Assembly: GCA_011032825.1 (NCBI GenBank)
Contig: JAADJZ010000019.1
Span: 733,173-797,172 of the forward strand
DNA: 64,000 bases
Direction: 5' to 3'
Origin: Massariosphaeria phaeospora
Taxonomy: Eukaryota; Ascomycota; Dothideomycetes; Pleosporales
Shown: in pieces, positions 3,196 through 64,000 of the stretch
Layout of the letters: every line of letters starts with the position of its first letter
How positions within the stretch are numbered: position 1 is the stretch's first letter
Position numbers and translations under genes: made by a program
Notes under the pieces: model-generated
Databases searched by the model: none
What the model saw: only the letters and a program-made list of their open reading frames with translations
What the model was told of the DNA's origin: nothing

Positions 3196-3663
3196 ACAGA
3201 AGATAGAGGCTTATAGCGTAACTGCTTAGACACTATCTAGTATGAGGTGATTCATCTGATCAATAGCGAGTAGTCTCAGCCTGATCTAGACTCACTGTGG
3301 GATAACACTATAAAGAAACAGATAGCTGCCTTTACCCCAAAGGGCTTACATTACACTTGAACAAGAATGAAATGGAAACTGTAAACCGGAGCGCTCACCC
3401 GAAGGGAGCTGCGGAGCGATCACGACACTATCTAGTAGTAAGCATTAAAAGAAAGAGAAGAAAGAGAAAGTAGAAACTTAGGTATTCTATGGCCTAACGC
3501 TACGAAAAAAACTTCGAATGAGAATAGGCTAACCTCGCCCACGTCGAAGATTCCACAGCTCCTAGCCGACCCGATGCATCGACATCTGTACCGACACTTC
3601 TACTGAATACAAATGAGGCTCCCCTTGAGCATTCGCGCAAACTTTTATCCCCACGTCCATGTC
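3196..3663. other. Intergenic region between convergent genes
   Basis: Shared 3' flank of the GH31 and kinase genes. I see AT-rich and purine-rich stretches, such as an AAAGAAAGAGAAG-like run near 3,449-3,470, but no gene, no RNA and no recognisable terminator. Confidence 0.6.
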
Positions 3664-29598: not shown

Positions 29599-29609
29599 AA
29601 GGTAAGAGG

Positions 29610-30875: not shown

Positions 30876-30915
30876 TGTAGACGAGGTAATCGATCTATCG
30901 AAAGTATTTTAATAG

Positions 30916-33782: not shown

Positions 33783-33832
33783 AGAGTTAGAGTTTAGAGT
33801 TTAGAGTTAGAGTTAGAGTTAAAGTTAAAGTT
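33783..33832 (+). repeat. Interstitial degenerate telomere tract
   Basis: About eight TTAGAG/TTAAAG/TTTAGAG units directly before the 3' end of a telomeric retroelement copy. Probably an old chromosome-end junction. Confidence 0.85.
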
Positions 33833-36800: not shown

Positions 36801-36898
36801 TTAGTCTTCGAGAAACTAGCTTCTTTTTAACTTTTTCTCGATTTCGGCTTAGTGCGTTTATTCTGCGTAGATTAGCGCTAACGTTTGCTAATTTCTAT
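33833..36898 (-). mobile_element. Telomeric retroelement, innermost copy (5'-truncated)
   Basis: The 3' end (TGTATGTAAAGTAAAATAAT, left) matches the other copies exactly in position. The right end stops at 36,898 inside ORF1. It lies about 12 kb from the main array, separated by the helicase gene. Confidence 0.85.
34263..36629 (-). pseudogene. Telomeric retroelement ORF2 (reverse transcriptase), innermost copy
   Basis: Same ORF2 as in the copy at 51,942-54,302, and start and stop are still in phase (2,367 nt). RIP changed the catalytic Asp residues: motif A reads SNVASMYTNI (near 35,660-35,690) and the YxDD box reads YINN (near 35,385-35,400). Only the C-terminal part of ORF1 (36,704-36,898) remains upstream. 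Confidence 0.8.
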
Positions 36899-42440: not shown

Positions 42441-42593
42441 TAAAGCAATCTAGCGCACTGCAGGCATAGTAAGCGTAGTAATAAACAAGTAACGCTTGTA
42501 TTTTATAAAGAGAAAAACGCTTAGCACTCGCAAGTAAAGAGCTTTAGAAGCTAAAGAGCTTACTTTAGCGAGTATAGAAAATCCAACAAAAGC

Positions 42594-43315
42594 AACAACG
42601 GCGTTAAAAAGCGTAGGCAGTATTATATTACGTTACAAAACCTTAGGCAGTTAGCACTACCAAAACAGCTTCAAACAAGCTAAAGCAGTTGCTATCTATT
42701 ATCTAACGTATTTTCTTTTATAAGTAAAATCTAATAAATCTAACGACAGCGTTAGAAAGCGCAGGCACTGTTCTCTTACGTTACCAAACCTTAGGCAGTT
42801 AGCACTACCAAAACAGCTTTAAACAAGCTAAAGCAGTTGCTATCTATTATCTAACGTAGGTTCTTTTATAAGCGAGATCTAATAGAAGCAACAACAGCGT
42901 TAAAAAGCGCAAGTAGTGTTTTCTTACGTTACTAAACCTTAGATAGTTAGCACTACTAGAACAGCTTTAAACAAGCTAAAGCAGTTGCTATTAATTATCT
43001 AACGTAGGTTTTCTTATAAGTAAAATCCAACGGAAGCAACGACAGCGTTAGAAAGCGCAGGTAGTGTTCTTTTACGTTACAAAACCTTAGACAGTTGGCA
43101 CTACCAAAACAGCTTCAAACAAGCTAAAGTAGTTGCTATTAATTATTTAACGTAGGTTCTTTTATAAGTAAAATACAATAAAGCAACGACAGCGTTAAAA
43201 TGCGTAGGTAGTGTTTTTTTAATTTACAAAACGTTGCATAGCTAGCGAGCAGTGTTCTGTTAATTTACATTACGTTGCATAGCTAGCACTACTAGAACAG
43301 CTTCAAACAAGTTAA
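42594..43315. repeat. 148-bp minisatellite downstream of the helicase
   Basis: About 4.5 tandem copies with a period of 147-148 bp, aligned on GCGTTA at 42,601, 42,749, 42,897, 43,045 and 43,192. Each holds CTTAGGCAGTTAGCACTACC and a C/T-rich block. The last copy is partial and rearranged. No ORF. Confidence 0.85.
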
Positions 43316-45607: not shown

Positions 45608-45710
45608 AATAGCAGAAGTTAGAGTTAGAGTTAGAAGTTAGAGTTAGAGTTAGAGTTAGAGTTAGAGTTAGAGTTAGAGTTAGAGTTAGAGTTAGAGTTA
45701 GAGTTAGAGT
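45608..45710 (+). repeat. Interstitial (TTAGAG)n tract
   Basis: About 16 units, nearly all TTAGAG rather than TTAGGG, between the helicase fragment and the first full retroelement copy. Confidence 0.93.
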
Positions 45711-46143
45711 TGTATGTAAAGTAAAATAATTCAATTAAATTTAGTCTTTCTGCAAAGAAGAGTTGTTGAAATGTCTTGGTTTGCAAGACACTTTTTGTTT
45801 CTTGTTGTATCTACAAAAAGAAACTTATTAAAAGTAAAAAGAAAGCTGTTTATATACATTGAAATCGAGAGAAAGTTTTTTTAAGTTGTTTACTTGCTGC
45901 GCTGCTAGAAGCTTAAGCTTCTAGCTGCTGCCTAGCCTTTGCAAAAGCTAAGTGCGAGTAAAGAAGCTAAGACAATGCAAAACGTTGTGCTATAAAACAA
46001 GCAGCTCTAAAAGTTTGTTAGTAATTAGTAAGTACTAGAGTTACTTAGAGTTCGAGTTAGAGTTAGCGCCTTGGCGCTAAGCTTTTACTCAAATCTTCTA
46101 TTTCCAGAAACTACAATAGTTAACTTAGATCGAAACAATACTT

Positions 46144-48502
46144 TTATATTACTAACAGACTTTTTCTACAAGCTAGCAGCTTTTTTTTAAAACAAGTTGT
46201 TTTTACGCGTAGTTATTTGCTGCGCAAGTGTTTTTCTAGATTTTCAAGCGTCCGCGCCGTTGCTAGCACTTTTATTCGTTTATTTAAGTACTTTACAAGC
46301 GCAGTAGTTGTTTTGCTGCTTTTTAGAGTTTTTAAATTGCAAAGGCAACGCTACTTCGCGACGCTCTCTTCTAGAGAGAGTATAACACTCAAAGAAGCAT
46401 GCAAAGTAGTAAAACTAGCAAAGGCAGCAACAGGTTTTATAAGTTTTACATTTTAAACTTAACTTAACTTTTGCAACGCACTTTCTCTAGAAGAAGCGCA
46501 TGCAAAGAAAAAAAAAAAAGCGAAAAATGTTATGCGCTAAAGCTGCAACCTAGATAACTAAACAAGCTTAAAGCGAAAAGTAGAATAATCTAGTATCTAG
46601 AAAAAACACATTTACTAACAGCTTTTTAATGTTAGTTTTTTCGATTTCCTTGTAAAGAATGCTTTGATTTACTGCCCAAACGAGATTCTACATAAATCTA
46701 GTCCGTTTTTTGGCAACGATACACTGCGGTAGGTACAGTAGGTTTAAAAGTTTAGCTTAAACTTATTTCAATCGCATGTTGTTTTAGATAGCGAAGGAAG
46801 AAACTTAGTTTTACACAAGGTTATATTTAGAAACAGCAATAATTGCATTACGTGCAACTCTAGTTTCTAGCTCAAAACTAGAAAAGTACAATTGCTATTA
46901 GACTTGTTGTCTTTAAGAGTGTAACACTTGTTTTAGCTAGCTGCGCGCTTAGAGCTTTGACATAAATATTGCTTTTTATGTTAAAAAGTATATTTTTTTG
47001 TAACATATTGCGCGGATTCGGCAGAGCTCGCTTTTAACTAGCTTTTTCTTAACTAAGAAAAAGTAAAAGCTTGCCTATAAGAGGTATTGATAGTAGTTTA
47101 GCACTTTGTTGAAAAGTGCGAAACATACTGCTGCTAACTCGAAGTGCGTGTAGAAGTGTACGTTAAAGAACAAAAGTTTGTAAGCAAAGTACGTTTATAG
47201 AATTTGCAAGTCTAAAACGCGAATAGCTTTAAAAGCCTCGTTAGATAGGTTAAGAACGAGAATATTATTAATATACTAGCAATAAAACTAAGGCGTACGT
47301 TAATAGAAGTATAGCTATTTGTAGTAAGCTATAAAGAAATTTGCAAAAACAAAAGCGCAATGTAACTCTATTAGAACCTCGTTAACTTAGCAAACTAATT
47401 TAAGCTCAATCTAAAATAGCGCTCTGTGCTAAATAAAATTAAAAGCTTTAAAAATCTAGTTTCTAGTTTGCTTATTATACTAGTTGCTATTTTTAAGAAT
47501 AAACTAAAGAGCATGCACAAATTTTTTTTAACAGATGTTTGTATACATGCTTGCAACGTTGCTAGTGTATAGTCGCATAGAAGTTGTATTGCTATAGTTA
47601 AATTCTGCAACTTCTAAAATAGATTTTAGCTACTTTCGCATATTTATAGAAAAGAGCGTTAAACTAGTAGTAGCATAGCGTGTAGTATTCTGCCTAGAAG
47701 TTCTAGCACATAAAAATGCATTAGTACAATAAGCTTAATTTTCTATAAACTTTTGTAGATCTTAGAAATGCTATAGAGAATTGAGATTACTTTATTTGCA
47801 TAAGCTAAACGCTAAAAACGTAATACTCGCTTCGTGTCTAGATGCGAGTAATATAAGCCGTTTTAATGCACACAAAAAAGTTAATGCTTAAAGTATTAAA
47901 CAGTACTTTAATAGAAGTTATTAAACTTTGCTTTTCTTTAGTGCTGAATTTGAATTTGTAGTATGTAGAAAAAAGCTTTTACTTGTGTCTTGTACTACTT
48001 ACGAGTAACAACTAAAACTTAAAGTTTTTGTTAGTAATTAGTGCTAGAAGCTAAGCTCTTGATAGCTAATCGCGCAGATTTTTCAAAGAAACTACGACTT
48101 GAAATAGAGCGTTGTTTTTAGAGTTAGGTTAGAGTATAAGTCACTCGTAAAGCGCACAGCGCAAGGTTTTTCTTTAACTTAAATACTATTTGCAAACTAA
48201 TCGTCGTTAATGCCTGTGTCTTAGCTAGTTAACAGATACAAAATAAATTTGTGCTAGCTAAGCAGTACGTTTGTACCGTTGCTCTAAAAATGCGTTATAA
48301 AACAACACTTTTAACTTAGTTGCTCGAACTAGTCTAGCGCTACTTGTTAATTAAGCAGCTTAAAGAACAAAAACTTTAAATTTACGCTAAGCGTGTACTT
48401 AATGTCTATAGAAAGTTTAACACTATCGAGTTTGTGTACACCTAAGCGCTAGTTTATAAGCGTTTCAAACTAATGCGCAAGCTAAGTGCGCTAGATGTAC
48501 AT
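46144..48502 (-). pseudogene. Retroelement ORF2 (reverse transcriptase), copy 1
   Basis: Same protein as the copy at 51,942-54,302. Start and stop are out of phase by one base, so it has an indel as well as RIP stops. Motif A reads SNVASMYTNI around 47,530-47,560; the catalytic Asp is lost. Confidence 0.75.
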
Positions 48503-48576
48503 TATTTAAAATAAAAAGTTTTAAAGTTAAAAGAACTCTAGAGGCAGCGCGCTGTTTGCATAGAGTAATAGTGCAT

Positions 48577-49489
48577 TTAGCGCTTTTTCTACTGCTTTTA
48601 GAAAAAGTGCCGCGTTTTTTGTTGCTTTTTTAGCAGCGCTTCGACACCTTAGCGGTGTTTTCGTTTAGTTTTTGGTTTTCAAGAAACTAGCTTCTTTTTA
48701 ACTTTTTCTCAATTTCGGTTTAGCCTGCTTATTCTTTCTAGATTGTTGCTAGCGTTTGCTAATTTCTTTAATAAACTCGGCTAAAGCTTTTTTTTGCTAG
48801 GCAAGGCGCTAGTAGCTTCGACCTAAGCTTTTTTCTGCGTTGCTAATTGTTTTTTCTTAGTTTCAATTTGTCGGTAGGCAGCGTTGGCTCTAATTGAAAT
48901 AGTTGTTTTAACTAATAATTCTTTGCACGGTTGGTTTATTAGAAGCGTAAAAGCTTGAAGCTAATGTAGTTGTTATCTGCTGCTAATTTCTAGCCGTTAA
49001 AAAAGCTTTAGTCTGCGCGTCTAATCGCACAATTGTTCAAGAATTTCGATTTTAGCTTTTTTGATTTCAATTATGCGTTCTAGCGCTGCTTTTTTTGATG
49101 CTTTAAGAGCTAAGAAGAAGTCTTTAAAAGCGAGTTGCCTATGTTCGGTAGCTAGTTTCAAACTTAAACAAAGAAAGCTCGAAGGGATTTTAGTTTAGAA
49201 AGATTAAAGTTTGTTTTTGCTAAAGAGTTAGCAATAGACTTCGCAAAAGAGTTTTCTTATTCTTTTAAAACAACAATAGCGTTAGCTATTTTAAAGTGCG
49301 CTTAAACAATTTGTTTAAGTAACGTTTTCGTTTGTTTCTAAACAAAAGCGAGAACAAGCGCTACGAGTTAAGCAGTAGATTTAGCGTTAACAATTCGTTT
49401 AACAAAGCTGCTAATAAGCTTATTAGCAGTTTTTAGATTAAACTTAGCCGTTTAGTGTTGATAGTAGAAGAAGCTTTAACACTAGACAT
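48577..49489 (-). pseudogene. Retroelement ORF1, copy 1
   Basis: Corresponds to ORF1 of the 51.5-55.3-kb copy. The ATG is at 49,489. RIP stops and at least one indel are present. Confidence 0.68.
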
Positions 49490-49593
49490 TTTATCTATTA
49501 GCTTATTCTAAGTTAAACGGCTAGAGTAGAACTAAATCGTAGTGCTTGTAAATAGTAGAGTACTAAAGAAATCAAAGTAAATAGAGTTAGAGT

Positions 49594-49917
49594 TGTATGT
49601 AAAGTAAAATAATTTGATTAAATTTAGTCTTTTTGTAAAGAAGAGTTGTCGAAATGCTTAGTTCGCAAGACACTTTTCGTTTCTTGTTGTATTACAAAAA
49701 GAAACTTATTAAAAGTAAAAAAAAAGCTGTTTATATACATTAAAATTGAGAGGAAGTTTTTTCAAGTTGTTTACTTGCTGCGCTGCTAGAAGCTTAGGCT
49801 TCTAGCTGCTGCCTAGCTTTTGCAAAGCTAAATGCGAGTAGAGAAGCTAAAACAATGCAAAACGTTGTGCTGTAGAACGAGCAGCTCTAAAAGTCTATTA
49901 GTAATTAGTAGGTACTA
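49594..49917 (-). mobile_element. Telomeric retroelement copy 2 (3' end only)
   Basis: About 324 bp of 3' sequence, cut at the internal telomere-like motif (after GTAGGTACTAG) and continued by a telomere-like tract. No coding sequence. Confidence 0.85.
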
Positions 49918-50019
49918 GAGTTACTTAGAGTTCGAGTTAGAGTTAGAGTTAGAGTTAAGTTAGAGTTAAGTTAGAGTTAGAGTTAGAGTTAAAGTTAGAG
50001 TTAGAGTTAGAGTTAGAGT
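49918..50019 (+). repeat. Interstitial telomere-like tract
   Basis: About 16 units of TTAGAG with TTAAG and TTAAAG variants between retroelement copies 2 and 3. Confidence 0.9.
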
Positions 50020-51421
50020 TGTATGTAAAGTAAAATAATTAATTGAATTTAGTTTTTCTGCAAAGAAGAGTTGTCGAAATGTCTTAGTTCGCAAGACACT
50101 TTTCGTTTCTTGTTGTATCTACAAAAAGAAACTTATTAAAAGTAAAAAAAAAGCTGTTTATATACATTAGAATTGAAGGAAGTTTTTTTAAGTTGTTTAC
50201 TTGCTGCGCTGCTAAAGCTTAAGCTTCTAGCTGCTGCTTAGCCTTTGCAAAAGCTAAGTGCAAGTAGAAAAGCTAAGACAATGCAAAACGTTGTGCTGTA
50301 AAACAAGCAGCTCTAAAATTTGTTAGTAATTAGTAGGTACTAGAGTTACTTAGAGTTTGAGTTAGAGTTAGCGCTTTAGCGCTAGGCTTTTACCTAAATC
50401 TTCTGTTTCTAGAAACCGCAATAGTTAACCTAGATAAAACAATACTTTTATATTACTAACAGACTTTTTCTACAAGCTAGCAGCTTTTTTTTGAAACAAG
50501 TTGTTTTTACGCGTAGTTGTTCGCTGCGCAAGTGTTTTCCTAGATTTTCAAGCGTCCGCGCCGTTGCTAGCACTTTTATTTGTCTATTTAAGTACTTTAC
50601 AAGCGCAGTAGTCGTTTTGCTGCTTTTTAAAGTTTTTGAATTGCAAAGGCAACGCTACTTTGCAACGCTTTTCTCTAGAGAGAGTATAACACTCGAAAAA
50701 GCATGCAAAGTAGTAAAACTAGCAAAGGCAGCAACAGGTTTTACAGGTCTTACATTTTAAACCTAACTCAACTTTTGCAACGTACTTTCTCTAGAGAAAG
50801 CGCATGCAGAAAAGGAAAAAGAAACGAAAAAATGCAATGCGCTAAAGCTGCAACTGCTTGTTACTACAGCTTAAAGCAAAAAGTAGAATAATTTAGTATC
50901 TAAAGAAAACACATTTACTAACAGCTTTTTAATGTTAGTTTTTTCGATTTCTTTGTAAAAAATGCTTTGATTTACTGCCTAAACGAGATTTTACATGAAT
51001 CTAGTTCGTTTTTTGGCAACAATACACTGCGGTGAGTACGATAGGTTTAAGAGTTTAGCTCAAACTTATTTCAATCGCATGTCGTTTTAGATAGCGGAGA
51101 AAGAAATCTAGTTCTACACAAGGTTATATTTAGAAACGGCAATAATTGCATTACGTGCGACTTTAGTTTCTAGCTTAAAACTAAAAAAGTACGATTGCTA
51201 TTAAACCTGTTGTTTCTAGAAGTGTAATACTTGTTTTAGCTAGCCGCGCGCTTAAAGCTTCGACATAAATGTTGCTTTTTATGTTAGAAAGTATATTTTC
51301 TTGTAGCATATTGCGCGGATTCGGCAAAGCTCGCTTTTAACTAGCTTTTTCTTAACCGAGAAAAAGTAGAAGCTTGCTTATAAAAGGTATTAATAGTAGT
51401 TTAGCACCTTGTTGAAAAGTG
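50020..51421 (-). mobile_element. Telomeric retroelement copy 3 (5'-truncated, 1.4 kb)
   Basis: Normal 3' end. It stops at about 51,421 inside ORF2 and joins straight to TTAGAG repeats. It keeps the C-terminal third of ORF2 (stop at 50,448-50,450). Confidence 0.85.
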
Positions 51422-51510
51422 TTTAGAGTTAGAGTTAAAGTTAGAGTTTTAGAGTTAGAGTTTAGAGTTAGAGTTAGAGTTAGAGTTAGAGTTAGAGTTA
51501 GAGTTAGAGT
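51422..51510 (+). repeat. Interstitial telomere-like tract
   Basis: About 14 units, mostly TTAGAG, between copies 3 and 4. Confidence 0.9.
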
Positions 51511-51941
51511 TGTATGTAAAGTAAAAATAATTCGATTGAATTTAGTTTTCTGCAAAGAAGAGTCGTCGAAATGCCTTAGTTCGCAAGACACTTTTCGTTT
51601 TTTGTTGTATCTACAAAAAGAAACTTATTAGAAGTAAAAAAAAAGCTGTTTATATACATTAAAATTGAGAGAAAGTTTTTTAAGTTGTTTACTTGCTGCG
51701 CTGCTAGAAGCTTAAGCTTCTAGCTGCTGCCTAGCTTTTGCAAAAGCTAAGTGCAAGTAAAGAGCTAAAATAATGCAAAACGTTGTGCTGTAAAACAAGC
51801 AGCTCTAAAAGTTTGTTAGTAATTAGTAGGTACTAGAGTTACTTAGAGTTTGAGTTAAAGTTAGCGCCTTGGCGCTAGGCCTTTACCTAAATCTTCTATT
51901 TCCAGAAACCGCAATAGTTAACCTAGATCAAAACAATACTT

Positions 51942-54302
51942 TTATATTACTAACAGACTTTTTCTACAAGCTAGCAGCTTTCTTTTGAAACAAGTTGTTT
52001 TTACGCGTAGTTGTTCGCTGCGCGAGTGTTTTCTTAGATTTTCAAGCGTCCGCGCCGTTGCTAGCACTTTTATTTGTCTATTTAAGTACTTTACAAGCGC
52101 AGTAGTTGTTTTGCTGCTTTCTAAAGTTTTTGAATTGCAAAAGCAACGCTACTCTGCGACGCTTTTCTCTAAGAAAAGTATAACACCCGAAAAAGCATGC
52201 AAAGTAGTAAAACTAGCAAAAGCAGCAACAGGTTTTACAGGTTTTACATTTTAAACCTAACTCAACTTTCGCAACGCACTTTCTCTAGGGGAAGCGCATG
52301 CAGAAAAGAAAAAAAAAACGAAAAAATGCTATGCGCTGAAGCTGCAACTGCTTGTTACTACAGCTTAAAGCAAAGAGTAAAATAATTTAGTATCTAAAGA
52401 AAACACATTTACTGACAGCTTTTTAATGTCGGTTTCTTCGATTTCCTTGTAAAGAATGCTTTGATTTACTGCCTAAACGAGATCCTACATGAATCTAGTT
52501 CGTTTTTTGGCAATAATACACTGCGGTAGGTACAGTAGGTTTAAGAGTTTAGCTCAAACCTATTTCAATCGCATGTCGTTCTAGATAGCGGAGGAAAAGA
52601 TCTAGTTTCACACAAGGTTATATTTAAAAACGGCAATAATTGCATTACGTGCAACTCTAGTTTTTAGCTTAAAACTAGAAAAGTACAATCGCTATTGGAC
52701 CTGTTGTTTTTAAAAGTGTAACACTTGTTTTAGCTAGCCGCGCGCTTAGAGCTTTAACATAAATGTCGCTTTTTATGTTAAAAAGTATATTTTCTTGTAG
52801 CATATTGCGCGGATCCGGCAGAGCTCGCTTTTAACTAGCTTTTTTTTAACTAAAAAAAAGTAAAAGCTTGCTTATAAAAGGTATTAATAGTAGTTTAGCA
52901 CTTTGTTAAAAAGTGCGAAATACACTGCTGCTAACTTAAAGTGCGTGTAAAAGTGTACGTTAAGAAACGAAAGTTTGTAAGCAAAGTGCGTTTACAGAAT
53001 TTGCAAGCCTAAAACGCAAATAGCTTTAAAAGCTTCGTTAGATAGGTTAAAGACAAGAATATTATCAATATACTAGCGATAAAACTAAAGCGTACGTTAA
53101 TAGAAGTATAGCTATTTGTAGTAAGCTATAAAGAAATTTGCAAAGATAAAAGCGCAATGTAACTTTATTAGGACCTCGTTAACTTAGCAAACTAATTTAA
53201 GCTCAATCTAAAATAGCGCTTCGTGCTAAATAAAATTAAAAGCTTTGAGAATCTAGTTTCTAGTTTGCTTATTATACTAGTTGCTATTTTTAAGAATAAA
53301 CTAAAGAGCATGCACGAAATTCTTTTAACAGATGTTTGTATACATGCTTGCAACGTCGCTAGTGTGTAGTCGCATAGAAGTTGTGTTGCTATAGTTAAAT
53401 TTTACAACTTTTAAACACAGATTCTAGCTGCTTTCGCATATCTACGAGAAAAAGCGTTGAACTAGTAGTAGCATAGCGTGCAGTATTCTGCCTAGAGGTC
53501 TTAGCACATAGAAATGCATTGGTACAATAAGCTTAATTTTCTATAAACTTTTGTAGATTTTAGAGATGCTATAGAGAATCAAGATTGCTTTATTTGTATA
53601 AGCTAAACGCTAAAAACGTAATACTTGCTTCGTGTTCAAATGCGAGTAATATAAGCCGTCTTAATGCACACAAAAAAGTTAATACTCAAAGTGTTAAACA
53701 GCACTTTAATAAAAGTTATTAAACTTTACTTTTTTTTAGTGCTAAATTTGAATTTGTGGTATGTAGAAAAAAGCTTCTACTTATGTCTCGTACTACTTAC
53801 GAGTAACAACTAAAACCTCAAAGTTTTTGTTAGTAATTAGTGCTAGAAGCTAAGCTCTTAATAGCCAATCGCGCAGATTTTTCAAAGAAACTACGACTCG
53901 AAACAAAGCGTTGTTTTTAGAGTTAAGTTAAAATATAAGTCGCTTGTAAAGCGCACAGCGCAAGGCTTTCCTTCTAACCTAAATGCTGTTTGCAAACTAA
54001 TTATCGTTAATGCCTGTGTTCTAGCTAGTTAACAGATACAAAATAAATCTATGCTAGCTAAGCAGTACGTTTGTACCGTTGCTTTAAAAATGCGTTATAA
54101 AACAACACTTTCAACTTAGTTGCTTAAACTAGTCTAGCGCTACTTGTTAATCAAGCGGCTTAAAAAACAAAAACTTTAGATTTACGCTAAGCGTGTACTT
54201 GATGTCTATAAAAAGTCTAACACTATCGAGTTTGTGTACACCTAAGCGCTAGTTCATAAGCGTTTCAAACTAATGCGCAAGCTAGATGCGCTAGATGTAC
54301 AT
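51942..54302 (-). pseudogene. Retroelement ORF2: reverse transcriptase, Penelope-like
   Basis: The frame from ATG at 54,302 to TAA at 51,944 spans exactly 787 codons with no indel. Internal stops are nearly all TAA/TAG, as RIP produces from Gln and Trp codons. Motifs in order: LVVTRKQYETQV; MHFYVLRPLGRILHAML (fingers); TSDVASMYTNI (motif A, ~53,331-53,362); FANFFIAYY (motif B side); YIDNILVFN (YxDD box with one Asp changed, ~53,055-53,075); KLSFLNVHFY (FLD-type strand); ELCRIRAICY and MLKLQARG (thumb). The LYTNI-like motif A plus FLD and RGY-like segments are what Penelope-like reverse transcriptases show. I see no GIY-YIG endonuclease, but decay limits that statement. It would copy the element RNA onto chromosome ends. 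Confidence 0.78.
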
Positions 54303-54376
54303 TATTTAAAATAAAAAGTTCTAAAGTTAAAAGAACTCTAGAAGCAGCGCGCTATTTGCATGAAGCAATAGTGCAT

Positions 54377-55297
54377 TTAGCGCTTTTTCTACTACTTCTT
54401 AAAAGAAGTGCTGCGTTTTTTGTTGCTTTTTTAGTAGCGCTTCGACACCTTGGCAGTGTTCTTCGTCTAGTTTTTAGTCTTCGAGAAACTAGCTTTTCTT
54501 TGACTTTTTCTCGATTTCGGTTTAGCTTGCTTATTCTTTCTAAATTGTTGCTAGCGTTTGCTAATTTCTTTGATAAACTTAGCCAAAGCTTTCTTGTCGC
54601 TAGGCAAAGCGCTAGTAGCTTTAACCTAAGCTTTTTTCTGCGTTGCTAATTGTTTTTTCTTAGTTTCGATTTGTCGGTAGGCAGCGTTGGCTTCAATTGA
54701 AATAGTTGTTTTAACTAATAATTCTTCGCACGGTTAGTTTATTAGAAGCGTAAAAGCTTTAAGGCTAATGTAGTCGTTATCCGCTGCTAATTTCTAGCCG
54801 TCGAGAAGAGCCTTAGTCTGCGCGTCTAAATCGCACAATTGTTCAAGAATTTCAATCTTAGCTTTTTTAATTTCAATTATGCGTTCTAGCGCTGCTTTCT
54901 TTAATGCCTTAAAAGCTAAGGAGAAGTTTTTAGAAGCAAGTTGCCTATGTTTAGTAGCTAGTCTTAAAACTTAAATAGAAAAAGCTCGAAGAGATTTTAG
55001 TTTAAAAAGATTGAAGTTTGTTTTTGCTAAAGAGTTGGCAATGAACTTCGCAAAGAAGTCTTCTTATTCTTTCAAGACAACAATAGCGTTAGCTATTTTA
55101 AAGTGCGCTTAAACGATTTGTTTAAGTAACGTTTTCGTTTGTTTCTAAACAGAAGCAGGAACAAGCGCTACGAGTTAAGCAGTAGATTTAGCGTTAACAA
55201 TTCGTTTAACAAAGCTGCTAATAAGCTTATTAGCAGTTTTTAGATTAAACTCGGCCGTTTGAGTGTTAATAGTAGAAGAAGCTTTAATACTAGACAT
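54377..55297 (-). pseudogene. Retroelement ORF1: Lys-rich coiled-coil protein
   Basis: From ATG at 55,297 to TAA at 54,379-54,377 the frame stays open for 306 codons without an indel, apart from TAA/TAG codons likely to be former Gln/Trp. Visible segments include MSSIKASSTINTQTAEFNL, NKLISSFVKRIVNAKS, ALERIIEIKKAKIEILEQL (a clear heptad-like helix) and a basic tail KPKSRKSQRKASFSKTKN. This fits a nucleic-acid-binding partner of the reverse transcriptase, as ORF1 proteins of other retroelements. No named domain recognised. The same frame occurs at 48,577-49,489, 58,254-59,157 and 62,520-63,436. Confidence 0.72.
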
Positions 55298-55330
55298 TTT
55301 ATCTATTAGCTTATTCTAAGTTGGACGGCT

Positions 55331-55389
55331 AGGGTTAGAGTTAAAGTTAGAGTTAGAGTTAGAGTTAGAGTTAGAGTTAGAGTTAGAGT
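55331..55389 (+). repeat. Interstitial telomere-like tract
   Basis: About nine units. The first unit after the element end is still TTAGGG-like; the rest are TTAGAG/TTAAAG. Confidence 0.9.
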
Positions 55390-55822
55390 TGTATGTAAAG
55401 TAAAATAATTCAATTAGATTTAGTCTTTCTGCAAAGAAGAGTCGTTGAAATGCTTTAGTTCGCAAAACACTTTTCGTTTCTTGTTGTATCTACAAAAAGA
55501 AACTTATTAGAAATAAAAAAAAAGCTGTTTATATACATTGAAATTAAGGAGAAGTTTTTTCAAGTTGTCTACTTGCTGCGCTGCTGGAAGTTTGAGTTTC
55601 TAGCTGCTGCCTAGCCTTTGCAGGAGCTAAGTGCAAGTAGAGAAGCTAAGACAATGCAAAACGTTGTGCTGTAAAACAAGCAGCTCTAAAAGTTTGTTAG
55701 TAATTGGTAAGTACTAGGGTTACTTAGGGTTCGAGTTAGAGTTAGCGTCTTAGCGCTAGGCCTTTACTCAAATCTTCTATTTCTAGAAACCGCAATAGTT
55801 GACCTAGATCGAAACAATACTT

Positions 55823-58180
55823 TTATATTACTAACAGACTTTTTTTACAAGCTAGCAGCTTTCTTTTAAAACAAGTTGTTTTCACGCGTAGTTGTCTGTT
55901 GCGCGAGTGTTTTCCTAGATTTTCAAGCGTCCGCGCCGTTGCTAGCACTTTTATTCGTTTATCTAAGTACTTTACAAGCGCAGCAGTTGTTCTGCTGTTT
56001 CCTAGAGTTTTTAAATCGCAAAGGCAACGCTACTCTGCGACGCTTTCTCTTTAAGAGAAGTATTATATCTAAAAGAGCATGCGAAGCAGTGAAACTAGCA
56101 AAGGCAGCAACAGGTTTTACAAGTTTTACATTTTAAACTTAACTTAACCTTTGCGACGCACTTTTTTAGAGAAAGCGCATGCAAAAAAGAAGAAAGAAAC
56201 GAGAATGCTATGCGCTAAAGCTGCAACCTAGATAACTAAACAGGCTTAGAGCAAAAAGTAGAATAATTCGGTATCTAGAAAAGACACATTTACTAATAGC
56301 TTCTTAATGTCGGTTTCTTCGATTTCTTTGTAAAAAATGCTTTGATTTACCGCCCGAACGAGATTCTACATGAATTTAGTTCGTTTTTTGGCAACGATAC
56401 ACTGCGGTAGGTACAGTAAGTTTAAAAGTTTAGCTTAAACTTATTTCAATTGCATGTTGTTCTAGATAGCGAAAGAAAAGACCTAGTCCTACACAAGGTT
56501 ATATTTAGAAACAGCAATAATTGCATTACGTGCGACTTTAGTTTCTAGCCTAAAACTAAAAAGTACAATTGCTATTAAACCTGTTGTCTTTAAGAGTGTA
56601 ACACTTGTTTTAGCTAGCTGCGCGCTTAGAGCCTCGACATAAATGTCGCTTTTTATGTTAAAAAGTATGTTTTCTTGTAGCATATTGCGCAGATCTAGCA
56701 AAGCTCGCTTTTAACTAGCCTTTTTTTAACTAAAAAAAAGTAGAAGCTTGCTTATAAAAGTATTGATAGTAGTTTAGTACTTTGTTAAAAAGTGCGAAAC
56801 ACACTGCTGCTAACTTAAAGTGCGTGTAGAAGTGTACGTTGAAAAACGAAAGTTCGTAAGCGAAGTGCGTTTACAAGATTTGCAAGCTTAAAACGCGAAT
56901 AGCTTTAAAAGCCTCGTTAAATAGGTCAAAGACAAGAATATTATTAATATACCAGCAATAAAACTAAAGCGTACGTTAATAGAAGTATAGCTATTTGTAG
57001 TAGGCTATAAAGAGATTTGCAAAGACAAAAGCGCAATGTAACTCTATTAGAACCTCGTTAACTTAGCAAACTAATTTAGGCTTAATCTAAAATAGCGCTT
57101 CGTGCCAAATAAAATTGAAAGCTTTAAAAATCTAGTTCCTAGTTTGCTTATTATACTAGTTGCTGTTTTCAAGAATAAACTAAAAAGCATGCACGAAATT
57201 CTTTTAACAAATGTTTGTATACATGCTTGCAACGTCGCTAGTGTGTAGTCGCATAAAAGTTGTGTTGCTATAGTTGAAATTTGCAACTTTTGAACATAGA
57301 TTTCGGCTGCTTTCGCATATCTACGAGAAAGAGCGTTGAACTAGTAGTAGCATAGCGTGCAGTATTCTGCCTAAAAGTCCTAGCACATAGAAATGCATTA
57401 GTACAATAGGCCTAATTTTTATAAGCTTTTGTAGATCTTAGGAATGCTATAGAGAATTAAGATTGCTTTATTTGCATAAGCTAAACGCTAAAAACGTAAT
57501 ACTCGCTTCGTGTTTAAATGCAAGTAATATAAGCTGTCTTAATGCACACAAAGAAGTTAATGCTCAAAGTGTTAAACAGCACTTTAATAGAAGTTATCAA
57601 ACTCTACTTTTCTTTAGTGCTAAATTTGAATTTGTGGTATGTAAAAAAAAGCTTTTACTTGTGTCTCGTACTACTTACGAGTAACAACTAAAACTTTAAA
57701 GTTTTTGTTAGTAATTAGTGCTAGAAGCTAAGCTCTTAATAGCCAATCGCGCAGATTTTTCAAAGAAACTACGACTCGAAAGAAAGCGTTGTTCTTAGAG
57801 TTAGGTTAGAGTATAGGTCGCTCGTAAAGCGCACAGCGCAAAGCTTTCCTCTTAACCTAAATGCTGTTTGCAAACTAATCGTCGTTAATACCTGTGTCTT
57901 AGCTAGTTAATAGATACAAAATAAATTTGTGCTAGCTAAGCAGTACGTTTGTACCGTTGCTTTAAAAATGCGTTATAAAACAACACTTCTAACTTAGTTG
58001 CTCAAACTAGTTTAGCGCTACTTGTTAATTAAGCGGCTTAGAGAACAAAAACTTTAGATTTACGCTAAGCGTGTACTCGATGTTTATAAGAAGTTTAACA
58101 CTATTAAGTTTGTATACACCTAGGCGCTAGTCTATAAGCGTTTTAAACTAATGCGCAAGCTAAGTGCGCTAGATGTACAT
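55823..58180 (-). pseudogene. Retroelement ORF2 (reverse transcriptase), copy 5
   Basis: Start and stop are still in phase (2,358 nt, one codon shorter than copy 4). A Trp before the YxDD box is preserved (WYINN, ~56,935-56,955), which supports the view that the stops elsewhere are RIP products of Trp codons. The active-site Asp residues are changed to Asn. Confidence 0.77.
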
Positions 58181-58253
58181 TATTTAAAATAAAAAGTTTT
58201 AAAGTTAAAAGAACTTAGAGGCAGCGCGCTGTTTGCATAGAGCAATAGTGCAT

Positions 58254-59157
58254 TTAGCGCTTTTTCTACTGCTTTTAAAAAAGTGCTGCGTTTTTTGTTG
58301 CTTCTTTAGCAGCGCTTGACACCTTAGCGATGTTCTTCGTCTAGTTTTTAGTCTTCGAGAGACTAGCTTCTCTTTGACTTTTTCTCAATTTTAGTTTAGC
58401 CTGCTTATTCTTCTAGATTGTTGCTAGCGTTTGCCGATTTCTTTGATAAACTTAGCTAAAGCTTTTTGTCGCTAGGCAAGGCGCTAGTAGCTTTAACCTA
58501 AGCTTTTTTCTGCGTTGCAATTGTTTTTTCTTAGTTTTAATTTGTGGTAGGCAGCGTTGGCTCTAATTGAAATAGTTGTTTTAACTAATAATTTTCGCAC
58601 GGTTGGTTTATTAGAAGCGTAAAAGCTTAAGCTGATGTAGTTGTCATTCGCTGCTAATTTTCAGCCGTCGAAGAGAGCCTTGGTCTGCGCGTCTAGATCG
58701 CACAATTGTTTAAAATTTCGATTTAGCTTTTTTGATTTCAATTATGCGTTCTAGCGCTGCTTTTTTTGATGCTTTAAAAGCTAAGAAGAAGTCTTTAAAA
58801 GCGAGTTGCCTATGTTTAGTAGCTAGTCTTAAGACTTAAACAGAAAAGCTCGAAGGATTTTAGTTTAAAAAGATTAAAGTTTGTTTTTGCTAAAGAGTTA
58901 GTAATAGACTTTGCAAAGAAGTTTTTTATTCTTTTAAAACAACAATAGCGTTAGCTATTTTAAAGTGCGCTTAAACAATTTGTTTAAGTAACGTTTTCGT
59001 TCGTTTCTAAACAAAGGCAGGAACAAGCGCTACAAGTTAAGCAGTAATTTAGCGTTAACAATTCGTTTAACAAAGCTGCTAATAAGCTTATTAGCAGTTT
59101 TTAGATTAAACTCGGCCGTCTAAGTGTTAATAGTGAAAAAGCTTTAACACTAAACAT
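58254..59157 (-). pseudogene. Retroelement ORF1, copy 5
   Basis: Same as ORF1 of copy 4, with several one-base deletions in addition to RIP stops. Confidence 0.65.
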
Positions 59158-59263
59158 TTTATCTATTAGCTTATTCTAAGTTGGATAGCTAGGGTAGAAC
59201 TAGAATCGTAGTGCTTGTAACATAGTAGAGTACTAAAAGAATTAAAGTAGATAAAGTTAAAGT

Positions 59264-59589
59264 TGTATGTAAAGTAAAATAATTTAATTAGATTTAGTCT
59301 TTTTGCAAAGAAGAGTTGTTGAAATGCTTTAGTTCGCAAGACACTTTTCGTTTCTTGTTGTATCTACAGAAAGAAACTTATTAAGAATAAAAAAAAAGCT
59401 GTTTATATACATTAAAATCGAGGGAAAGTTCTTTCAAGTTGTTTACTTGCTACGCTGCTAGAAGTTTAAGCTTCTAGCTGCTGCCTAGCTTTTGCAAAGC
59501 CAAGTGCGAGTAGAAAAGCTAAGACAATGCAAAACGTTGTGCTGTAAAACGGGCAGCTCTAAAAGTCTGTTAGTAATTGGTAGGTACTA
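59264..59589 (-). mobile_element. Telomeric retroelement copy 6 (3' end only)
   Basis: About 326 bp, truncated at the same internal telomere-like motif as copies 2 and 8, then continued by telomere-like repeats. Confidence 0.85.
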
Positions 59590-59676
59590 GAGTTACTTAG
59601 AGTTCGAGTTAGAGTTAGGTTTTAGAGTTAGAGTTAGAGTTAGAGTTAGAGTTAAAGTTAAGGTTAGAGTTAGAGT
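59590..59676 (+). repeat. Interstitial telomere-like tract
   Basis: About 14 units of TTAGAG with scattered variants, including TTAAGG and TTAGGTT. Confidence 0.88.
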
Positions 59677-60104
59677 TGTATGTAAAGTAAAATAATTCAA
59701 TTGAATTTAGTTTTTCTGCAAAGAAGAGTTGTCGAAATGCCTTGGTTCGCAAGACACTTTTCGTTTCTTGTTGTATCTACAGAAAGAAACTTATTAAGAA
59801 TAAAAAAAAGCTGTTTATATACATTAAAATTAGAGGGAAGTTCTTTTAAGTTGTTTACTTGCTGCGCTGTTGAAGTTTGAGCTTCTAGCTGCTGCCTAGC
59901 CTTTGCAAAAGCCAAGTGCGAGTAGAGAAGCTAAAAAATGCAAAACGTTGTGCTGTAAAACGAGCAGCTCTAAAAGTCTGTTAGTAATTGGTAGGTACTA
60001 AAGTTACTTAGAGTTTAAGTTAGAGTTAGCGCTTGGCGCTAGGCTTTACCTAAATCTTTTATTTCTAGAAACCGCAATAGTTGACCTAGATCGAAACAAT
60101 ACTT

Positions 60105-62445
60105 TTATATTACTAACAGACTTTTTCTACAAGCTAGCAGCTTTCTTTTAAAACAAGTTGTTTTTACGCGTAGTTGTCCGCTGCGCGAGTGTTTTCCTAG
60201 ATTTTCAAGCGTCCGCGCTGTTGCTAGCACTTTTATTTGTTTATCAAGTACTTTACAAGCGCAGTAGTCGTTTTGCTGCTTCCTAGAGTTCTTGAATCGC
60301 AAAGGCAACGCTACTTCGCGACGCTCTCTCCTTAGAAAAGTATTATACCGAAAAAGTATGCAAAGTAGTAAACTAGCAAGAGCAGCAACAGGTTTTACAA
60401 GTCTTACATTTTAAACCTAACTCAACTTTGCAACGCACTTTTCTAGAGAAAGCGCATGCAAAGAAGGAGAAAGAAACGAGAATGCTATGCGCTAAAGCTG
60501 CAACCTAGATAACTAAACAAGCTTAGAGCAAAAAGTAGAATAATCTAGTATCTAAGAAAACACATTTACTAACAGCTTTTAATGTTGGTTTCTTCGATTT
60601 CTTTGTAAAAAATGCTTTGATTTACCGCCTAAACGAGATTCTACATGAATCTAGTTCGTTTTTTGCAACATACACTGCGGTAGGTACAGTAGGTTTAAAA
60701 GTCTAGCTTAAACTTATTTCAATCGCATGTTGTTCTAGATAGCGAAGGAAAAGACCTAGTCCTACACAAGTTATATTTAGAAACGGCAATAATTGCATTA
60801 CGTACAACTCTAGTTTCTAGCTTAAAACTAAAAAAGTACGATTGCTATTAACCTGTTGTTTTAAAGTGTAACACTTGTTTTAGCTAGCGCGCGCTTAGAG
60901 CCTCAACATAAATGTCGCTTTTATGTTAAAAAGTATGTTTTTTTGTAGCATATTGCGCGGATCTGGCAGAGCTCGCTTTAACTAGCTTTTTTTAACTAAG
61001 AAAAAGTAGAAGCTTGCTTATAAAAGTATTAATAGTAGTTTAGCACTTTGTTAAAGAGTGCGAAACACACTGCTGCTAACTGAATGCGTGTAAAAGCGTA
61101 CGTCGAAAAACAAAAGTTCGTAAGCAAAGTGCGTTTACAAAATTTGCAAGCTTAAAACGCGAATAGCTTCAAAAGCCTCGTTAGATAGGTCAAAGACAAG
61201 AATATTATTAATATACTAGCAATAAAACTAAAGCGTACGTTGATAGAAGTATAGCTATTTGTAGTAAGCTATAAAAAGATTTGCAAAAACAAAAGCGCAA
61301 TGTAACTCTATTAGGACCTCGTTGACTTAGCAAACTAATTTAGGCTTAATCTAAAATAGCGCTCTGTGCCAAATAAAATTAGAAGCTTCGAGAATCTAGT
61401 TTCTAGTTTGCTTATTATACTAGTTGCTGTTTTTAAGAATAAACCAAAGAGCATGCACGAAATTTTTTTAACAGATGTTTGTATACATGCTTGCAACGTT
61501 GCTAGTGTGTAGTCGCATAAAAGTTGTGTTGCTACAGTTAAAATCTGCAACTTTTAAACACAGATTTCGGCTGCTCTCGCATATCTACGAGAAAAAGCGT
61601 TGAACTAGTAGTAGCATAGCGTGTAGTATTCTGCCTAGAGGTTCTAGCACATAGAAATGCATTAGTACAATAGGCTTAATTTTCTATAGACTTTTGTAGA
61701 TCTTAGAAATGCTATAGAGAATCGAGATTGCTTTATTTGCATAAGCTAAACGCTAAAAACGTAATACCCGCTTCGTGTTTAAATGTAGGTAATATAAGCC
61801 GTTTTAATGCACACAAAGAAGTTAATGCTTAAAGTGTTAAACAGCACTTTAATAGAAGTCATCAAACTCTGCTTTTTTTTGGTGCTGAATTTGAATTTGT
61901 GGTATGTAGAAAAAAGCTTTCACTTGTGTCTCGTACTACTTACGAGTAACAACTAAAACTTTAAAGTTTTTGTTAGTAATTAGTGCTAGAAGCTGAGCTT
62001 CTAATAGCCAATCGCGCAGATTTTTCAAAAGGACTACGACTCGAAAGAGAGCGTTGTCCTTAGAGTTAGGTTAAGGTATAAGTCGCCCGTAAAGCGCACA
62101 GCGCAAGGCTTTTCTCTTAACTTAAATGCTGTTTGCAAACTAATTGTCGTTAATGCCTGTGTTCTAGCTAGTTAACAGATATAAAATAAATCTGTGCTAG
62201 CTAAGCAGTACGTTTGTACCGTTGCTCTAAAAATGCGTTATAAAACGACACTTTTAACTTAGTTGCTTAAACTAGTCTAGCGCTACTTGTTAATTGAGCG
62301 GCTTAGAGAATAAAAACTTTAAATTTACGCTAAGCGTGTACTTGATGTCTATAAAGAGTCTAACACTATCGAGTTTGTATACACCTAAGCGCTAGTTTAT
62401 AAGCGTCTCAAACTAATGCGCAAGCTAAGTGCGCTAGATGTACAT
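60105..62445 (-). pseudogene. Retroelement ORF2 (reverse transcriptase), copy 7
   Basis: The C-terminal ~65 codons are free of stops here (..LRVKTTCFKRKLLACRKSLLVI), confirming the end of ORF2. Upstream, RIP stops and indels break the frame; YxDD reads YINN near 61,200-61,215. Confidence 0.73.
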
Positions 62446-62519
62446 TATTTAAAATAAAAAGTTTTAAAGTTAAAAGAACTCTAGAGGCAGCGCGCTGTTT
62501 GCATGAAGCAATAGTGCAT

Positions 62520-63436
62520 TTAGCACTTTTTCTACTGCTTTTTAAAGAAAGTGCTGCGTTTTTTGTTGCTTTCTTAGCAGCGCTTCGACACCTTAGCAGT
62601 GTTCTTTGTCTAGTTTTTAGTCTTCAGAGACTAGCTTTTCTTTGACTTTTTCTAATTTCGGTTTAGCTTGCTTATTTTTTCTAGATTGTTGCTAGCGTTT
62701 GCCGATTTCTTTGATAAACTTGGCCAAAGCTTTCTTGTCGCTAGGCAAGGCGCTAGTAGCTTCGACCTAAGCTTTTTTCTACGTTGCCAATTGTTTTTTC
62801 TTAGTTTCAATTTGTCGGTAGGCAGCGTTGGCTCCAATTGAAATAGTTGTTTTAACTAATAATTCTTTGCACGGTTGGTTTATTAGGAGCGTAAAAGCTT
62901 TGAAGCTGATGTAGTTGTTATCTGCTGCTAATTTCTAGCCGTCGAGGAGAGCCTTAGTCTGCGCGTCTAGATCGCACAATTGTTCAAGAATTTCAATCTT
63001 GGCTTTTTTAATTTCAATTATGCGTTCTAGCGCTGCTTTTTTTGATACTTTAAGAGCTAAGGAGAAGTTTTTAAGAGCAAGTTGCTTATGTTTAGTAGCT
63101 AGTCTTAAGACTTAAACAGAAAGAGCTCGAAGGAATTTTAGTTTAGAAAAATTAAAGTTTGTTTTTGCTAAAAAGTTGGCAATGGACTTTGCAAAAGAGT
63201 TTTTTATTCTTTCAAGACAACAATAGCGTTGGCTATTTTAAAGTGCGCTTGAACAATTTGTTTAAGTAACGTTTTCGTTTGTTTCTAAACAGAGGCGAGA
63301 ACAAGCGCTACAAGTTAAGCAGTAGATTTAGCGTTAACAATTCGTTTAACAAAGCTGCTAATAAGCTTATTAGCAGTTTTCAGATTAAACTTGCCGTCTA
63401 AGTGTTAATAGTAGAAGAAGCTTTAACACTAAACAT
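62520..63436 (-). pseudogene. Retroelement ORF1, copy 7
   Basis: ATG at 63,436. Frame-breaking indels and RIP stops. A stop-free stretch near 62,652-62,837 retains the basic Lys-rich part. Confidence 0.65.
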
Positions 63437-63540
63437 TTCTTTATTAGCTTATCCTAAGTTGGACGGCTAGGGTAGAACTAGATCGTAGTGCTTGTAACAT
63501 AGTAGAGTACTAAAGAAATTAAAGTAAATAAAGTTAGAGT

Positions 63541-63866
63541 TGTATGTAAAGTAAAATAATTTGATTGGATTTAGTCTTTCTGCAAAGAAGAGTCGTTGAA
63601 ATGCCTTAGTTTGCAAGACACCTTTCGTTTCTTGTTGTATCTACAGAAAGAAACTTATTAGAATAAAAAAAGAGCTGTTTATATACATTAGAATCGGGGG
63701 AAGTTCCTTCGAGTTGTTTACTTGCTGCGCCGCCGGAAGTTTGGGCTTCCGGCTGCTGCCTAGCCTTTGCAGGAGCCAAGTGCGAGTGGAGGAGCCAAGA
63801 CGATGCAGGACGTTGTGCTGTAGAACGGGCAGCCCTGAAAGTCTGTCAGTAATTGGTAGGTACTAG
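63541..63866 (-). mobile_element. Telomeric retroelement copy 8 (terminal, 3' end only)
   Basis: About 326 bp of 3' sequence capped by the telomere. The first ~160 bp are RIP-mutated like the other copies, but the last ~160 bp are much richer in GC (GCCGCCGGAAG, GGCTTCCGGCTG) and look close to the ancestral sequence. Confidence 0.88.
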
Positions 63867-64000
63867 GGTCACTTAGGGTTAGGGTTAGGGTTAGGGTTAG
63901 GGTTAGGGTTAGGGTTAGGGTTAGGGTTAGGGTTAGGGTTAGGGTTAGGGTTAGGGTTAGGGTTAGGGTTAGGGTTAGGGTTAGGGTTAGGGTTAGGGTT
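63867..64000 (+). repeat. Telomere, (TTAGGG)n
   Basis: From 63,873 to the last base there are 21 perfect TTAGGG units without variants, running outward on the plus strand. This is the chromosome end, or the point where the assembly stops within it. Confidence 0.98.

What the first reader, a model, noticed from the sequence alone, without database searches (positions are those of the whole stretch)
45711..64000. Array of telomere-attached retroelements that look like Penelope-type elements in a RIP-active ascomycete
Seen: eight copies of one element lie in the same orientation. Each starts at the same 3' end directly after telomere-like repeats on the centromere side, coding on the strand that reads away from the chromosome tip. 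5' ends vary (four near full length; 1.4 kb; three of ~325 bp). ORF2 carries reverse-transcriptase motifs (DVASMYTNI, YID[D/N], FLN/FLD strand, ARG segment). Known: an element copied onto the 3' end of the G-rich telomere strand gives exactly this orientation and truncation pattern, as in Athena/Coprina, HeT-A and MoTeR elements. Inference: this is a terminal, probably endonuclease-deficient Penelope-like element. I know of basidiomycete examples (Coprina) but not of one described in a Dothideomycete-type fungus.
Basis: partly seen in the sequence, partly recalled or inferred. Interest (0 to 1): 0.92.

Follow-up and report, generated by a model that had tools for sequence, protein, structure and literature searches.

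The report
Telomere-attached Penelope-like retroelement array
The tip of this fungal chromosome is a stack of copies of a retroelement whose telomerase-like enzyme appears to copy itself straight onto the chromosome end; elements of this kind are already known, but this array keeps an unusually readable record of how they are added and then mutated by the host.

Summary
The window ends in a telomere. Inward of it lie five mutated copies of one element (plus a sixth, unreported, at 33,831), all reading away from the tip, each starting at the same 3' end after a telomere-like tract. The "three ~325 bp copies" are 5' terminal repeats (pLTRs) of full copies, not separate insertions. Host by protein identity: Massariosphaeria phaeospora (Dothideomycetes). 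Less mutated copies sit at other ends of the genome; one keeps an open 718-codon frame. It matches RVT_1 (E 4.9e-6), has no GIY-YIG match, and its predicted fold is closest to telomerase. All 45 scored genome-wide pLTR matches lie within ~30 kb of a contig end, in one orientation. So: a terminal, apparently endonuclease-deficient Penelope-like element. Not the first in a Dothideomycete: Mycosphaerella graminicola has a published telomeric PLE family (PMC4522978). Extra details: a hammerhead-like core in the pLTR, lost in all eight array pLTRs; a telomere-like seam at the pLTR edge where 6 of 14 appended copies stop; and a C-to-T mutator with a strong 5'-pyrimidine (YpC) preference that turns buried TTAGGG into TTAGAG, unlike the CpA signature reported for Leptosphaeria maculans.

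The parts
45617..45711 (+). innermost telomere-like tract of the finding, TTAGAG units
   Evidence: TRF; hexamer tally (14 TTAGAG, 1 TTAGAA)
45710..49590 (-). copy 1: 3' pLTR plus complete body (reference 1-3894), coding strand minus
49593..49946 (-). 5' terminal repeat (pLTR) of copy 1, running into a telomere-like tract
49925..50020 (+). telomere-like tract
50019..51416 (-). copy 2, 5'-truncated at reference 1404
51423..51511 (+). telomere-like tract
51510..55335 (-). copy 3, nearly complete, stops at about reference 3829 (end merges with the tract)
52374..54257 (-). ORF2 (reverse transcriptase) remnant of copy 3, 49 in-frame stops
   Evidence: G000:C11:785546-787429
55330..55390 (+). telomere-like tract
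55389..59259 (-). copy 4: 3' pLTR plus complete body
59263..59618 (-). 5' pLTR of copy 4
59597..59677 (+). telomere-like tract
59676..63537 (-). copy 5: 3' pLTR plus complete body; least mutated of the six window copies by whole-copy count
60575..62394 (-). ORF2 remnant of copy 5 (three overlapping protein matches)
63540..63894 (-). 5' pLTR of copy 5, running into the telomere
63598..63661 (-). remnant of the hammerhead-like stretch in the tip pLTR; core CTGATGAG now CTAATAAG
   Evidence: core altered in 8 of 8 array pLTRs
63873..64000 (+). telomere, 21 TTAGGG
33831..36888 (-). sixth copy, outside the finding, reference 1-3055, most mutated of the six by whole-copy count

Best explanation
This is a family of terminal Penelope-like retroelements of about 3.9 kb with two ORFs: ORF1 without a known family, and ORF2 a telomerase-like reverse transcriptase with no recognisable endonuclease. 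The unit is flanked by ~340-bp terminal repeats (pLTRs) bounded by telomere-like sequence. Shown here: a fixed 3' end, mostly after a telomere tract; variable 5' ends, mostly followed by telomere repeat; end-only location; sense strand reading inward; lightly mutated copies outermost on the ends that have one. Inferred: the RNA's 3' end, which would run ...CATACAACCCTAACCC, pairs with the 3' G-strand overhang of a short or uncapped telomere; the overhang primes reverse transcription, so no nick is needed; the cDNA extends the chromosome; telomerase re-caps the new end, helped by the telomere-like seam at the pLTR edge. The buried tract and the copy below it become repeats and are then mutated C to T on both strands by a RIP-like mutator that strongly prefers a 5' pyrimidine.
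Against: No copy examined was seen to have both ORFs open: the C32 copy's ORF1 frame is interrupted. No transcript, protein or new insertion was seen. Pfam may miss a divergent endonuclease; the last ~25 residues of ORF2 are poorly predicted. On YpC sites of one common 1-kb region the C11 gradient is not monotonic (.647 .663 .663 .613 .557 .563), and C24 and C51 show none. Copies were compared over unequal reference ranges. Two neighbouring C18 copies share the same 411-nt end, so some units probably moved by recombination. A few 5' ends are followed by non-telomeric sequence (33831 copy, C21 copy, C31:302390, a 63-nt piece on C46). TERT's place in the tree rests on a very long branch.
Confidence: 0.9

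Rival explanations
1. Passive subtelomeric repeat (Y'-like): the copies spread between ends by break-induced replication and unequal exchange, and the RT is an irrelevant relic.
For: Two C18 units end at the same nucleotide (411) beside a telomere tract; another subtelomeric repeat is shared by many contigs; interstitial tracts break and re-seed MoTeR arrays in M. oryzae (PMC7367193, passages).
Against: One fixed 3' end with many different 5' ends, most capped by telomere repeat; lightly mutated copies on five ends (C8, C18, C26, C31, C32), with a 718-codon frame open on C32; frame conserved against a relative 82% identical to the C32 protein.
Confidence: 0.1
2. A site-specific LINE such as MoTeR/FoTeR or TRAS/SART, which nicks telomere repeats with its own endonuclease.
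For: Same orientation and telomere targeting; a TTCGGG-bearing seam resembles the TTCGGG(TTTGGG)n run of MoTeR1 (PMC7367193, passages).
Against: No endonuclease Pfam match in ORF2; telomerases rank above R2 (15.0) and LINE-1 (14.3) by fold; GIY-YIG-bearing PLE-type protein among the relatives and tandem pLTRs in the element. No named MoTeR or R2 sequence was in the tree.
Confidence: 0.03
3. The element is domesticated and maintains this fungus's telomeres in place of telomerase.
For: Element copies near an end of 16 contigs.
Against: TERT gene present; ends carry canonical TTAGGG, and the last ~9 kb of C3, C5 and C21 had no element match; 20 of the 24 copies compared are heavily mutated.
Confidence: 0.03

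Closest known systems
Telomeric PLE family ('family 4') of Mycosphaerella graminicola, PMC4522978 (sections 9 and 17 read, other passages)
   Same: Dothideomycete; RT gene; subtelomeres only; 1-3 TTAGGG at the 3' end, which points away from the telomere; truncated elements in tandem with full-length ones (13 cases); described as lacking the endonuclease
   Different: 3.4-3.5 kb against 3.9 kb here; no pLTR, ribozyme, seam or mutation-age order in the sections I read; sequences not compared (not in hand)
Athena (bdelloid rotifers) and Coprina (basidiomycetes), Gladyshev and Arkhipova 2007 (paper not held; recalled, and as cited in PMC4522978)
   Same: endonuclease-deficient PLEs attached to telomeres, with telomeric repeat at the 3' end
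   Different: other hosts; no named sequence in hand to test membership of the Coprina clade
Penelope families of Agaricus bisporus, PMC7473861 (passages)
   Same: fungal PLEs linked to chromosome ends
   Different: basidiomycete; that paper finds no RIP-like degeneration
Poseidon of Anolis (PAc), PMC11167929 (passages)
   Same: PLE RT, tandem pLTR organisation, hammerhead motif
   Different: carries GIY-YIG and cleaves AT-rich DNA; reverse transcription starts internally on its RNA
MoTeR (PMC7367193, passages) and FoTeR (PMC12857005, passages)
   Same: fungal telomere-targeted retroelements with the 5' end toward the tip; MoTeR1 carries TTCGGG(TTTGGG)n
   Different: LINE-type RT with a restriction-like endonuclease

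Membership tests
Penelope-like elements (PLE) | Reverse transcriptase related to PLE RTs and to telomerase | tested here: met
   RVT_1; distant hits to proteins I read as PLE-type, one (P0085) with GIY-YIG; telomerases top the fold list; fungal clade 100/100. The relatives carry no PLE label from their sources
Penelope-like elements (PLE) | Terminal pLTRs / head-to-tail partial tandems | tested here: met
   15 of 15 complete bodies followed directly by a pLTR start; pLTR shared between two bodies on C8, C18, C24 and C2
Penelope-like elements (PLE) | Hammerhead ribozyme in the pLTR | tested here: inconclusive
   CUGAUGA - 7-bp stem - GAAA - 9-bp stem - UC in 7 of 8 lightly mutated pLTRs tested (not in the C31 one), nowhere else in the window and the loci then held, 0 of 300 shuffles; 66 nt folded alone form both stems, a longer stretch folds otherwise; Rfam Hammerhead_3 only 13.5 bits, E 6.3, cut-off 48.5, none; stem I is 2 bp
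Terminal endonuclease-deficient PLE (Athena/Coprina type) | No GIY-YIG domain | tested here: met
   no GIY-YIG match at E<=1 in ORF2, P0001, P0030; positive control P0085 1.7e-6. A divergent nuclease is not excluded
Terminal endonuclease-deficient PLE (Athena/Coprina type) | 3' end joined to telomeric repeat, at chromosome ends, one orientation | tested here: met
Coprina clade | Phylogenetic place with named Coprina sequences | not testable with these tools
   no hit named Coprina among the 91
Telomere-primed transposition | Priming on the G-strand overhang | not testable with these tools
   needs biochemistry; only the junctions are seen
MoTeR/FoTeR-type LINE | Restriction-like endonuclease C-terminal to RT | tested here: inconclusive
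   no endonuclease family in the Pfam scan of ORF2; the motif given in PMC12857005 was not searched for by itself
Canonical ascomycete RIP (CpA; definition from PMC4352252 passages) | C-to-T mutation mainly at CpA | tested here: not met
   CpA holds 33% of changes (3530 of 10838 in 24 copies) against 90% of sites stated for L. maculans TEs; the 5' base matters more: CCN/TCN 39-84%, ACN/GCN 2-9% in 20 copies
RIP-like repeat mutation | C-to-T on both strands of duplicated DNA | tested here: met
   C>T and G>A similar in heavily mutated copies, few transversions; C/T variation also in another subtelomeric repeat. Timing in the sexual cycle not tested

The most novel reading that the evidence does not exclude
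Two linked readings are not excluded. (1) This fungus has a repeat mutator aimed at YpC rather than CpA. It rewrites each buried telomere in a stereotyped way (TTAGGG to TTAGAG) once a retroelement has been added outside it, so that array order and mutation load record the history of terminal transposition. (2) A hammerhead cut 58 nt inside the pLTR would leave the RNA with the same 58 nt at both ends, letting the telomere-primed cDNA jump to another RNA and build head-to-tail units that share a pLTR, until the telomere-like seam hands the end to telomerase.
Probability: 0.35. Interest if true: 0.7.

Novelty: new member of a known kind. Interest (0 to 1): 0.5.

Why it matters
Terminal PLEs bear on how telomerase relates to retroelements. 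In this genome heavily and lightly mutated copies sit at many ends, so the 3' and 5' junctions, the terminal repeats and, roughly, the order of insertion can be read. The YpC preference is a separate lead: it predicts a RIP-type enzyme or pathway with a site preference other than the CpA one, and explains why interstitial telomere tracts here read TTAGAG.

Tried and rejected
Rfam on window 33000-64000 and on L009, L010, L013, L014 at E<=5 gave two matches each, all far under their cut-offs. A hammerhead family appeared only in a 369-base search, also far under threshold. The PDB sequence search with the C8 ORF2 frame gave nothing better than E 0.029. Pfam found nothing convincing in ORF1; its protein search found 4 relatives. 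A LINE and a Y'-type repeat were considered and set aside (see rivals).

The idea that complete RNA copies end at the predicted hammerhead cut (58 nt) was rejected as stated: of 15 appended stretches, ends lie at 24, 40 and 42 nt, six in the seam, two at 411, one each at 534 and 2975, one is complete and one is cut by the contig end; none lies at 58. A separate 63-nt piece on C46 is followed by non-telomeric sequence. The seam test (binomial 3.7e-11) was run with 16 ends; the inventory has 14 with a known end, and shared ends may not be independent. I expected a monotonic mutation gradient and found it only on whole-copy counts of C11. In the second repeat the 5' rule is not absolute: 61 of 144 RpCpA columns vary.

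Literature: the M. graminicola precedent came. Searches aimed at sequence context of RIP (13 and 4 papers listed, two of them opened for passages, PMC6180176 and PMC4352252) showed no YpC preference in an ascomycete. Most subscription papers are not held, so this shows little. One search found no paper with the host's name and 'telomere'; none with 'Coprina'.
Full report
WHAT IS THERE. The window (G000:C11:733173-797172, the last 64 kb of a 797,172-base contig in a 42.08-Mb, 51-contig assembly) ends in a perfect TTAGGG array. The 3' end of one element, TTGTATGTAAAGTA on the + strand, occurs nine times: 33831, 45710, 49593, 50019, 51510, 55389, 59263, 59676, 63540. Six of these (33831, 45710, 50019, 51510, 55389, 59676) follow tracts made mostly of TTAGAG. 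The other three follow the 5' end of a complete body, with only ...AGTTAGAG or ...AGTTAAAG between. These three are ~350-nt repeats of the element's own 3' end and belong to the copy before them. I therefore count five copies in the finding's interval, three with a 5' terminal repeat, one truncated at 1.4 kb and one short of its 5' end by about 65 nt, plus a sixth copy at 33831-36888.

HOST. A host reading frame at 860-2515 is 100% identical over 86% of its length to a Massariosphaeria phaeospora protein on a 797,172-base contig, the length of C11. ORF1 matches, 99% over 35% of the query, a protein of the same species on a 1,104,394-base contig, the length of C8. The species is in Pleosporales, Dothideomycetes.

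OTHER COPIES IN THE SAME GENOME. A 342-base pLTR query found 45 matches on 16 contigs, all within about 30 kb of a contig end (with contig lengths; one of these contigs, C46, is only 10.8 kb). 40 of 44 first-look candidates were scored and the tool calls its counts lower bounds. Protein P0001 found 56 matching stretches, all on the same 16 contigs. On the fetched end stretches I found 50 pLTR matches; the one furthest from the end ahead lies 29,830 bases from it, and all 50 have the sense strand running inward. By my count of that listing, 35 follow a telomere-like tract, 14 follow a body end and one is partial. Those at contig starts (C2, C29, C46, C50) have no assembled terminal CCCTAA array; the 30-base TTAGGG pattern occurs 152 times forward and 0 times reverse in the assembly, so that these are chromosome ends is inferred. 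The last ~9 kb of C3, C5 and C21 had no match; C21 has one further in.

TERMINAL REPEATS AND SEAM. Of 15 complete bodies, 15 are followed at once by a pLTR start, none by a telomere tract. The appended stretch ends after 24, 40 or 42 nt; after 411 (twice), 534 or 2975 nt; runs complete once; is cut by the contig end once; or ends six times at 342-357 nt, in a telomere-like seam (CACTTAGGGTTCGGGTTTAGGGTTAG in the C18 copy). A uniform model makes six such ends very unlikely, but ends inside telomere-like sequence cannot be placed to the base and some copies may be duplicates. The seam, and the 11-nt TAGGGTTAGGG at the other pLTR edge, mean that the RNA would carry telomere complement at both edges of the pLTR.

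HAMMERHEAD-LIKE CORE. On the sense strand of seven of eight lightly mutated pLTRs tested, the stretch CUGAUGA-GUUUCUU...AAGAAAC-GAAA-stem-UC has the order and unpaired core of a type I hammerhead (layout recalled). A descriptor found it there and nowhere else in the window and the loci then held, and in 0 of 300 shuffles of the element. 66 nt folded alone form stems II and III, though the energy is unremarkable (z -1.87) and a longer stretch folds otherwise. Rfam scores it 13.5 bits, E 6.3, well under threshold. Stem I is two pairs. I call it a candidate. All eight array pLTRs have lost the core. A review states that all available PLE sequences hold hammerhead motifs (PMC6155905, passages), so a real one would be expected.

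ORDER IN TIME. Against the C32 copy, the mutated fraction of G+C sites on C11 falls from .387 at 33831 to .369.353.351.337 and .318 at the tip (copies cover unequal parts of the reference). On C18 (.382 .411 .414 .056), C31 (.367 .284 .028) and C26 (.275 .268 .050) the lightly mutated copy is the outermost. C24 and C51 show no gradient. Restricted to YpC sites in one common region, C11 reads .647 .663 .663 .613 .557 .563. This fits addition at the tip, with exceptions.

THE MUTATOR. In 20 heavily mutated copies, C is changed in 39-84% of cases when preceded by C or T and in 2-9% when preceded by A or G; the 3' neighbour matters less (A > C > G > T, 24 copies). In two lightly mutated copies 101 of 1926 YpC and 2 of 1817 RpC sites are changed, CCA most. 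In another subtelomeric repeat, eight copies, 396 of 428 YpC columns and 128 of 667 RpC columns vary between C and T; 61 of the latter are among 144 RpCpA columns, so the rule is not absolute there. In mutated tracts of the window and fetched loci the hexamers are 300 TTAGAG, 24 TTAGGG, 16 TTAAAG, 3 TTAAGG and 3 others, of 346. The element's own rates predict this: ACC 2%, ACCCT 81%, CCTA/TCTA 25-33%, although the third C is changed less often (20 of 346) than predicted. PMC4352252 (passages) reports CpA, CpT or CpG signatures in ascomycetes, 90% CpA for L. maculans, and a TpCpG preference in Microbotryum. The genome has four PF00145 matches at three loci; I did not establish which, if any, is RID.

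HOW IT WORKS. Best reading: RNA with CCCTAA complement at its 3' end is primed by the G-strand overhang, the cDNA becomes the new chromosome tip, and telomerase re-caps it. Location, junctions, orientation, RT and rough order are shown; priming, processing, template jumping and re-capping are inferred. The M. graminicola paper gives the same priming model for its elements, citing Gladyshev and Arkhipova 2007.

NOVELTY. A family of a known kind in a host where I found no report of it (searched the host name with 'telomere' only). The YpC mutator and the seam are the parts a specialist would not expect.

Noticed in passing
array copies throughout; another subtelomeric repeat at window 38500-40500: C-to-T mutation strongly prefers a 5' pyrimidine (YpC), in two repeat families; differs from the CpA signature reported for L. 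maculans
   Followed up: yes
45617-45711, 49925-50020, 51423-51511, 55330-55390, 59597-59677: Buried telomere tracts read almost uniformly TTAGAG, as the element's own mutation spectrum predicts; the third C is changed less than predicted
   Followed up: partly
L024 2211-3998 and flanks (G000:C2:12111-13898): A second PLE-like element (about 31% identical to the first, RVT_1 3.6e-8) with telomere-like tracts on both sides, 6 TAG in frame, no second copy found, next to the first family on the same contig end
   Followed up: partly
33831-36888: Sixth copy of the element inside the AT-rich zone, outside the finding
   Followed up: yes
38500-40500: Repeat with 18 matches on 17 contigs, many near a contig end; nature not determined
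   Followed up: partly
L026 (C46) 24-365 and 425-766: Two near-solo pLTRs on a 10.8-kb contig, each starting after a telomere-like tract
   Followed up: no
G000, all contigs: The 30-base TTAGGG pattern occurs only in forward orientation (152 forward, 0 reverse); contig starts lack CCCTAA, probably an assembly or read artefact
   Followed up: no
25999-30908: A Ty3/gypsy-like LTR element on the minus strand in long open frames at ~50% GC, so apparently recent and little mutated; named by reading the frames, not by a family scan
   Followed up: no
42578-43232: 148-bp tandem repeat, 4.4 copies, in the AT-rich zone
   Followed up: no
G000:C1:409870-411015, C50:406180-407152, C23:1290093-1290560: Three loci matching C5 DNA methyltransferase (PF00145), candidates for the RIP-like mutator
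   Followed up: no
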